From assembly GCA_009773155.1 (NCBI GenBank), contig WOVA01000004.1, positions 38,902 through 102,901 of the forward strand: a DNA stretch of 64,000 nucleotides. The letters run 5' to 3'. Position numbers and translations under genes: made by a program. This document shows positions 56,780 to 57,838 of this stretch, one piece after another (positions within the stretch are counted from its first letter, which is position 1; each line of letters begins with the position of its first letter). This DNA comes from Elusimicrobiota bacterium (GTDB lineage Bacteria > Elusimicrobiota > Elusimicrobia > Elusimicrobiales > UBA9959). Under the pieces are notes generated by a model, which saw nothing but the letters and a program-made list of their open reading frames with translations, ran no database searches and had not been told where the DNA came from.

Positions 56780-57838
56780 TCAACCGCCTATGCTGCTCAT
56801 CTCGATATGGCCGGAGCCGGGAGTATCCTTGCGGTGATTAGATTTTACTAAAAATACCTTTTTTATATAGGAGTACAGCGCCTCTTCGGGCGCGCCGCGG
56901 CGCAGGAGGTCCCGGAGGTCATGCGTGGCGCCTGCGAAAAGGCAGGGATAAACTTTGCCGGCGCAGTCCATGCGGACGCGGTTGCAGGCCCCGCAGAAAT
57001 AATCGCTGCGGCCGCTGATAAACCCGATGCGCCCCTTCGCGCCGCGCAGTTTATAAACCCTGGCCGGGCCGGCCGGTCGCAGTGCTCGGAACAACGAGCC
57101 TCCGGCTCCACAGGTGCCGGGCGCTATATCGCCCGGCCCCGGCACCGACTGCGGCGAATGCCGCCCTAATCCGTCAGCCTGCGACGGAGCGACCGCCTCC
57201 AGCGGCCCCAGCGCGTCCTCGATCCTGCGCCGCGTCGCCGCGGTGGGCACCAGCGCGTCGCCCAGCCTGGCGGCCCGCGCGTTCGTCGCGTAGAACTCGA
57301 TGAAACGCACCGACAGCGGGCGGTCCAGCGTCAGCCGCGCGAAATCGGCGGCCTCGGCGTCGTTGAGCCGCCGCATCAGCACGACGTTCAGCTTCACGCC
57401 GCGCGGCCACATCTCCAGCGCCGCCTCCACGCCGCGCCACACCTTGTCGAAGGAAACAGAGCCGGTTATTTTCTCGAAAGTCTCTTTTTTCAGCGAGTCC
57501 AGGCTTATATTGACGCGGTCCAGCCCCGCCTCGCGCAGCGGCGCGGCCAGTTCTTCGAGCAGCAGGCCGTTGGTGGTAAGAGCCAGTTCCTCGAGCCCGG
57601 GGATGGCCCGCAGCATCTCCACCAGCCCGACGATGTTCTTCCTGACCAGCGGCTCGCCGCCCGTGAGGCGCACCTTGCGCACGCCGGCCTTGACGAAGGC
57701 GGCGACGGCCCGGGTTATCTCCTCGTGGCGCAGCAGGTCCTCGTGCCGGAGGAAGCCCCGCTTCTCCAGCGGGGTGCAGTAGACGCAGTTGAGATTGCAC
57801 CTGTCGGTCAGCGACAGGCGCAGGTAATCTATTCCCAT
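56780..57838 (-). CDS. moaA: GTP 3',8-cyclase
   Basis: DYLRLSLTDRCNLNCVYCTP...RLTGGEPLVRKNIVGLV...GRIGFISGRSDYFCGACNRVRMDCAGKVYPCLF. Contains composite B+C repeat. Confidence 0.95.
   Translation of the reverse strand: MGIDYLRLSLTDRCNLNCVYCTPLEKRGFLRHEDLLRHEEITRAVAAFVKAGVRKVRLTGGEPLVRKNIVGLVEMLRAIPGLEELALTTNGLLLEELAAPLREAGLDRVNISLDSLKKETFEKITGSVSFDKVWRGVEAALEMWPRGVKLNVVLMRRLNDAEAADFARLTLDRPLSVRFIEFYATNARAARLGDALVPTAATRRRIEDALGPLEAVAPSQADGLGRHSPQSVPGPGDIAPGTCGAGGSLFRALRPAGPARVYKLRGAKGRIGFISGRSDYFCGACNRVRMDCAGKVYPCLFAGATHDLRDLLRRGAPEEALYSYIKKVFLVKSNHRKDTPGSGHIEMSSIGG
57071..57175. repeat. Composite repeat in moaA: family B interrupted by family C
   Basis: 57071-57086 = B right end, 57087-57133 = C, 57138-57175 = B left end, in reverse orientation relative to B1-B3. 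Confidence 0.83.

What the first reader, a model, noticed from the sequence alone, without database searches (positions are those of the whole stretch)
57071..57175. Nested repeat: family C inside family B, both inside moaA
Seen: moaA contains the two ends of family B (GGCCGGTCGCAGTGCT and CCCGGCACCGACTGCGGCGAATGCCGCCCTAATCCGTC, reverse orientation) separated by CGGAACAACGAGCCTCCGGCTCCACAGGTGCCGGGCGCTATATCGCCC. That insert also occurs alone at 15699-15753. The result is the MoaA segment APSQADGLGRHSPQSVPGPGDIAPGTCGAGGSLFRALRPAG just before 'ARVYKLRGAKGRIGFIS', where MoaA proteins normally have a short linker. Element-in-element nesting in frame would imply successive mobility events.
Basis: partly seen in the sequence, partly recalled or inferred. 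Interest (0 to 1): 0.82.

Follow-up and report, generated by a model that had tools for sequence, protein, structure and literature searches.

The report
Nested in-frame hairpin elements in genes
A bacterium of the phylum Elusimicrobiota carries about a hundred copies of a tiny 51-letter mobile DNA hairpin that inserts cleanly inside essential genes without breaking their reading frame, and even inside its own copies, so that proteins gain extra loops step by step.

Summary
moaA (window 56780-57838, - strand) carries an exact 102-nt (34-codon) insert at 57071-57172: a 51-nt unit "B" with a 51-nt unit "C" inside it, antiparallel. C is a diverged subfamily of the same two-hairpin unit as B. Fourteen family relatives, two of the same genus, have an empty moaA site; no target duplication is seen. 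Genome-wide there are 92 B-pattern matches (control 0) and about 98 element sites. At least 55 sites are in frame inside ORFs, including argS, cysS, pheS, pheT, kdsB, murI, hprK, hflX and purQ. Fourteen further genes show empty sites in sister species (48, 51, 60 or 102 nt). Hairpin-1 arms covary. Eighteen B copies contain a C-type unit. Nesting is caught in stages: rsmE is empty in one sister species, has B in a second, and B plus a nested unit here; three further sites show B alone in one species and B plus C in another. It works like Rickettsia palindromic elements but is not one of them: 51 nt, no terminal inverted repeats, only in a few Elusimicrobiota. The mobilising enzyme is unknown.

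The parts
56780..57838 (-). moaA (GTP 3',8-cyclase) carrying the insert, 352 aa
   Evidence: ORF; Radical_SAM and Mob_synth_C in Pfam; orthologues about 318 aa
57071..57172 (+). whole composite insert, 102 nt = 34 codons
   Evidence: alignment with same-genus moaA of G003 and G001
57071..57087 (+). B unit, bases 1-17 (5' arm of hairpin 1)
   Evidence: profile match, composite table
57088..57138 (-). C unit, 51 nt, nested antiparallel in B
   Evidence: nhmmer 1-51, 56.2 bits
57139..57172 (+). B unit, bases 18-51 (3' arm of hairpin 1, hairpin 2, AATCC end)
   Evidence: profile match to hmm 17-51 starting 57138; boundary from the composite table
15696..15746 (+). C unit not inside a B, in frame in ORF 14869-16077 (-)
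15579..15629 (-). B unit, same ORF as the solo C; left flank resembles half of palindrome A
14177..14227 (-). B unit in frame in ORF 13963-14835 (-); orthologous site empty in G003
7187..7237 (-). B unit in frame in ORF 6157-7710 (-)
4335..4382 (+). 48-nt C-type unit (GGCCGGTCGTATAACT... subtype)
   Evidence: partial profile matches

Best explanation
The moaA insert is two copies of one superfamily of tiny non-autonomous mobile elements, one nested in the other. A unit is 51 nt (48 nt in some subtypes): GGCC start, hairpin 1, CACC linker, hairpin 2, (T/A)TCC end. It enters DNA precisely, usually at CC^G(G/T)C, without a target duplication. Because 51 nt is 17 codons and the B consensus is open in all six frames, it is tolerated in linkers and surface loops as a Gly/Pro/Ser/Arg-rich peptide. 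Units later enter resident units (C in B, a 48-nt unit in C, B in palindrome A), giving longer inserts that still keep the frame. Shown: the copies, clean empty sites, in-frame position, covarying stems, nested insertions between sister species. Inferred: movement by a single-stranded DNA route acting on the hairpins (my estimate 0.4 for that step alone), by an enzyme supplied in trans and not identified; neutral or mildly harmful effect on the proteins.
For: Copies: 92 pattern matches in this genome, 35 in G007, 10, 5 and 4 in genus mates, 0 in 340 other genomes of the phylum; reversed control 0. Empty sites in 14 genes by DNA alignment, net 48/51/60/102 nt, plus moaA. No duplication: base 2 of the unit is G in 68/70 copies, but the second base after its end is not G in 23/70. 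55 of 98 sites have the same best coding frame on both sides and all 55 ORFs are open through the element. Host families confirmed. Covariation: pairs 5-19 GC/CG/AT and 6-18 GC/CG/TA, 0 of 2000 shuffles reach the observed pairing. Stepwise nesting: rsmE empty / B / B plus nested unit and three more B versus B+C pairs. B consensus of 75% GC inside a 45% GC genome, three tandem units in frame in a radical SAM gene. AlphaFold model of MoaA: residues 224-257, exactly the insert, below pLDDT 50, core confident.
Against: No enzyme with matching ends was found: the three Y1 (RAYT-like) genes here do not have B/C at their flanks, and hairpin-1 matches revealed no longer autonomous copy. B's folding energy is not better than shuffles (z 0.06), so the structure claim rests on covariation. 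No strand bias by GC skew. No expression or protein data: translation of the inserts is inferred from open frames.
Confidence: 0.87

Rival explanations
1. The B+C composite is a longer B form that moves as one 102-nt unit; no nesting event took place in moaA itself.
For: 14 composites share the junction after B base 17; moaA relatives are all empty.
Against: Most B copies lack C. C also stands alone, and enters B at other points (after base 22; after base 19 in G007). C subtypes and B arm subtypes are freely combined (L002, L008, L006, L009). Orthologous B-only and B+C pairs exist. It remains possible that composites, once formed, also move whole.
Confidence: 0.35
2. The inserts are not translated: they are removed from the message or bypassed by the ribosome, like the byp elements of some yeast mitochondria (the latter from general knowledge).
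For: Short hairpin-forming inserts at precise positions in conserved genes, many copies.
Against: Lengths are multiples of three (48, 51, 60, 102) in the aligned genes, no in-frame stop in any of 55 ORFs; the two 50-nt copies found lie where the flanks do not share a coding frame. The B consensus has no stops in any frame, so the stop test itself has little power.
Confidence: 0.05
3. B and C are REP-type elements moved by one of the RAYT (Y1) transposases of this genome.
For: Hairpins, high copy number, Y1 genes present, no target duplication.
Against: Mostly inside genes, no GTAG-type tag, no B/C at the Y1 genes, two of which are flanked by GGGGAC...GTCCCC palindromes like family A.
Confidence: 0.2

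Closest known systems
Rickettsia palindromic elements (RPE) and Wolbachia palindromic elements
   Same: Hairpin-forming repeats inserted in frame in conserved genes and also between genes; inserts exposed or flexible; mode of spread unknown (PMC2229807, PMC3767692, PMC10969869)
   Different: 51 nt instead of about 100-150 bp; no terminal inverted repeats; different phylum and sequence; recurrent nesting and tandem arrays; clean empty sites and intermediate states in sister species
REP / REPIN with RAYT transposases
   Same: Short hairpins in high copy, no target duplication
   Different: REPs are mostly extragenic and carry a GTAG-type tag (PMC8266576); B/C are mainly intragenic and not next to the Y1 genes. 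Family A (GGGGACACCATGC palindrome, about 141 copies) may be the REP-like one here
Non-autonomous IS200/IS605-type elements (single-stranded DNA transposition)
   Same: Asymmetric ends, subterminal hairpins, precise insertion without duplication, preferred sequence on one flank (features from PMC6006769, PMC8266576 and general knowledge)
   Different: No cognate TnpA or autonomous copy found; target CC^G(G/T)C not described for them to my knowledge
MITEs (Correia, ERIC, RUP)
   Same: Small, non-autonomous, sometimes in frame
   Different: MITEs have terminal inverted repeats and usually a target duplication; neither is seen here

Membership tests
Rickettsia palindromic elements (RPE) | Inserted in frame in conserved protein genes | tested here: met
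   55 of 98 sites; 14 genes plus moaA with empty sites
Rickettsia palindromic elements (RPE) | Hairpin-forming with conserved pairing | tested here: met
   covariation
Rickettsia palindromic elements (RPE) | Length about 100-150 bp with terminal inverted repeats | tested here: not met
   51-nt units, GGCC and (T/A)TCC ends; definition from PMC2229807
Rickettsia palindromic elements (RPE) | Sequence family of Rickettsia/Wolbachia | tested here: not met
   exact core pattern in 85,488 species genomes found only in two Elusimicrobia MAGs beside the own genome
REP/RAYT | GTAG- or CGTC-type tag next to the hairpin | tested here: not met
   column table
REP/RAYT | Repeat copies flank the transposase gene | tested here: not met
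   (three Y1 genes of the own genome)
IS200/IS605-type non-autonomous element | No target duplication, preferred sequence on one flank | tested here: met
IS200/IS605-type non-autonomous element | Cognate TnpA with the same ends | tested here: inconclusive
   not found; genome in 93 contigs
MITE | Terminal inverted repeats and target duplication | tested here: not met

The most novel reading that the evidence does not exclude
The elements move as single-stranded hairpins and seek unpaired DNA, so resident hairpins (A, B, C) become landing sites; this builds ever longer in-frame peptides in proteins by successive nesting, a ratchet that lengthens protein loops in units of 16-17 codons. Four of the five distinct nested positions seen lie in or at the edge of unpaired stretches, and the two main positions in B do not fit the usual target sequence.
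Probability: 0.3. Interest if true: 0.88.

Novelty: new variant of a known kind. Interest (0 to 1): 0.76.

Why it matters
Protein-coding palindromic elements have been discussed as a peculiarity of Rickettsiales for 25 years, with their mode of spread unknown. Here is a separate, smaller family in another phylum with clean empty sites, target preference, covarying stems and sister species caught at successive stages (rsmE: empty, B, B plus nested unit). That makes the spread of such elements, and stepwise growth of protein loops by mobile DNA, open to comparison and test.

Tried and rejected
Known RNA family: no Rfam match above threshold. RNA genes as hosts: ARAGORN found none in 24 loci. Phage or viral origin: no match in phage records or viral contigs. 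Leading/lagging strand bias by local GC skew: no signal, mean 0.001 +- 0.004. Autonomous long copy with the same hairpin 1: the unmatched hairpin-1 places that I fetched were ordinary units or units inside a larger repeat. Target duplication of GGCC: rejected because the right flank often differs from GGCC. Papers on such elements in Elusimicrobia: none found in the held library.

Full report
What was checked. The reverse-strand gene 56780-57838 is moaA. Against moaA of two same-genus genomes (G003, G001, 92% identical over the aligned parts) and 12 others of the family, the insert is exactly 102 nt / 34 codons, and the site is empty in all of them. A protein search of 5.8 billion sequences gives the window protein itself (seen in four contigs, so probably not a single-assembly error) and close homologues of 318-328 aa; none of those aligned has the insert or a 17-aa B-only form.

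What B and C are. B is a 51-nt unit, GGCCGGTCGCAGAGCTCCCGGCACCGACTGCGGGCAATGCCGCCCTGTTCC. Tandem copies repeat with period 51. C in reverse complement is GGCCGGGCGACATAGCGCCCGGCACCTGTGGAGCCGGAGGCTCGTTGTTCC: same length, same start, same CGGCACC after hairpin 1, same end. So B and C are subfamilies of one two-hairpin unit; a 48-nt subtype exists too. DNA folding gives hairpins 2-22 and 30-43. The arms covary: pair 5-19 is GC, CG or AT and pair 6-18 GC, CG or TA in 74 distinct units; 806 of 814 cells are paired and none of 2000 shuffles reaches that. Relatedness of copies inflates such a test, but double changes of several kinds at both pairs are hard to get otherwise.

How many and where. 84 matches of the B core with up to 3 mismatches, control 0; with a slightly shorter core 92 in this genome, 35 in G007, 10, 5 and 4 in three genus mates and none in 340 further genomes of the phylum. 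In fetched loci I count 98 element sites. For 55 the best coding frame is the same left and right of the element, and all 55 ORFs run open through it. All six frames of B are used, unevenly. Host genes by NCBIfam/Pfam include argS, cysS, pheS, pheT, kdsB, murI, hprK, hflX, purQ, a rarA-type AAA ATPase, a sigma-70 factor, a glycosyltransferase and an amidohydrolase.

Clean insertion. I joined the flanks of 16 sites and searched G001 and G003: alignment shows empty sites with net differences of 51, 102, 48 or 60 nt in 14 of these genes; one of them (L056) is filled in G001 and empty in G003; one more locus (cysS, where B sits inside an A palindrome) differs by 72 nt in total; the last gave no match. 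The base after the element is G in 69/70 and C at +3 in 63/70, and -1 is C in 56/70: target CC^G(G/T)C. A GGCC duplication is excluded because the right side often reads GT, GC or GA.

Nesting. Eighteen composites occur here: 14 with the second unit after B base 17, four after base 22, always antiparallel; G007 has one after base 19. One copy (L015) is a triple nest, a 48-nt unit inside C inside B, in frame in a PAS/CBS/DUF294 protein. B also sits in the middle of palindrome A. Most important, orthologous sites show stages: rsmE has B in G002 and B plus a 48-nt unit in this genome, and is empty in G001; L232/L024, L041/L063 and L188/L065 show B alone in one species and B plus a C-type unit in another. 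Insertion or exact loss cannot be polarised at every site, but rsmE with its empty state is best read as empty, then B, then nested unit. For moaA the intermediate has not been seen.

Outside this genus. In G007, a genome of about 45% GC, the element (75% GC in consensus) stands out; a radical SAM/SPASM protein there carries three tandem units in frame. WAS_Bin_5 has a composite in frame near the start of an ORF that I take, from its sequence only, for a histone-deacetylase-like protein; NCBIfam gave no match.

Effect on the protein. AlphaFold2 with 41 MoaA sequences gives a confident core; residues 224-257, exactly the insert, are below pLDDT 50, between two strands. A disordered loop is the likely outcome; activity was not tested.

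Mechanism. Shown: precise insertion, no duplication, target preference, conserved paired arms, nesting. Inferred: single-stranded DNA transposition by an enzyme in trans (about 0.4). Y1 genes exist (three here), but two are bordered by GGGGAC/GTCCCC palindromes resembling family A, and none by B/C. The nested positions in B do not match the usual target, which hints at structure-guided landing; this is a hypothesis.

Place among known things. It works like Rickettsia palindromic elements, which sit in frame in conserved genes (PMC2229807, PMC3767692, PMC10969869), but fails their length, terminal repeat and sequence criteria. It is not REP (PMC8266576) nor a classical MITE. I rate it a new variant of a known kind.

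Noticed in passing
window 11187-11213, 15508-15534, 26962-26988, 59923-59949: Palindrome family A (GGGGACACCATGCnGCATGGTGTCCCC), about 141 copies in the genome; shares GGGGAC ends with palindromes flanking two Y1/RAYT genes, so perhaps the true REP-like family here.
   Followed up: partly
window 14869-16077 (-): One ORF contains an A palindrome, a B unit and a C unit within 250 nt, all in frame.
   Followed up: partly
L063 1490-1600 and L065 1490-1600: A further ~21-nt hairpin sequence (CTCGCCTTGCGGGG / its reverse complement) sits in the loop of B's hairpin 2 in two species: possibly a fourth, still smaller family.
   Followed up: no
L259, L260, L261, L262: A larger dispersed repeat (GCGACGACTGACGCCGG...) carries units of this superfamily at fixed positions (two in L259/L260, one seen in L261/L262); nature unknown, no tRNA or Rfam match.
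   Followed up: partly
L178 1-2468: Both subunit genes of phenylalanyl-tRNA synthetase carry inserts: pheS two tandem B units, pheT a C unit.
   Followed up: no
51 in-frame B sites of the own genome: Reading-frame use of B is uneven: 19 antisense phase 0 and 11 sense phase 2 of 51; could reflect target phase or peptide tolerance.
   Followed up: no
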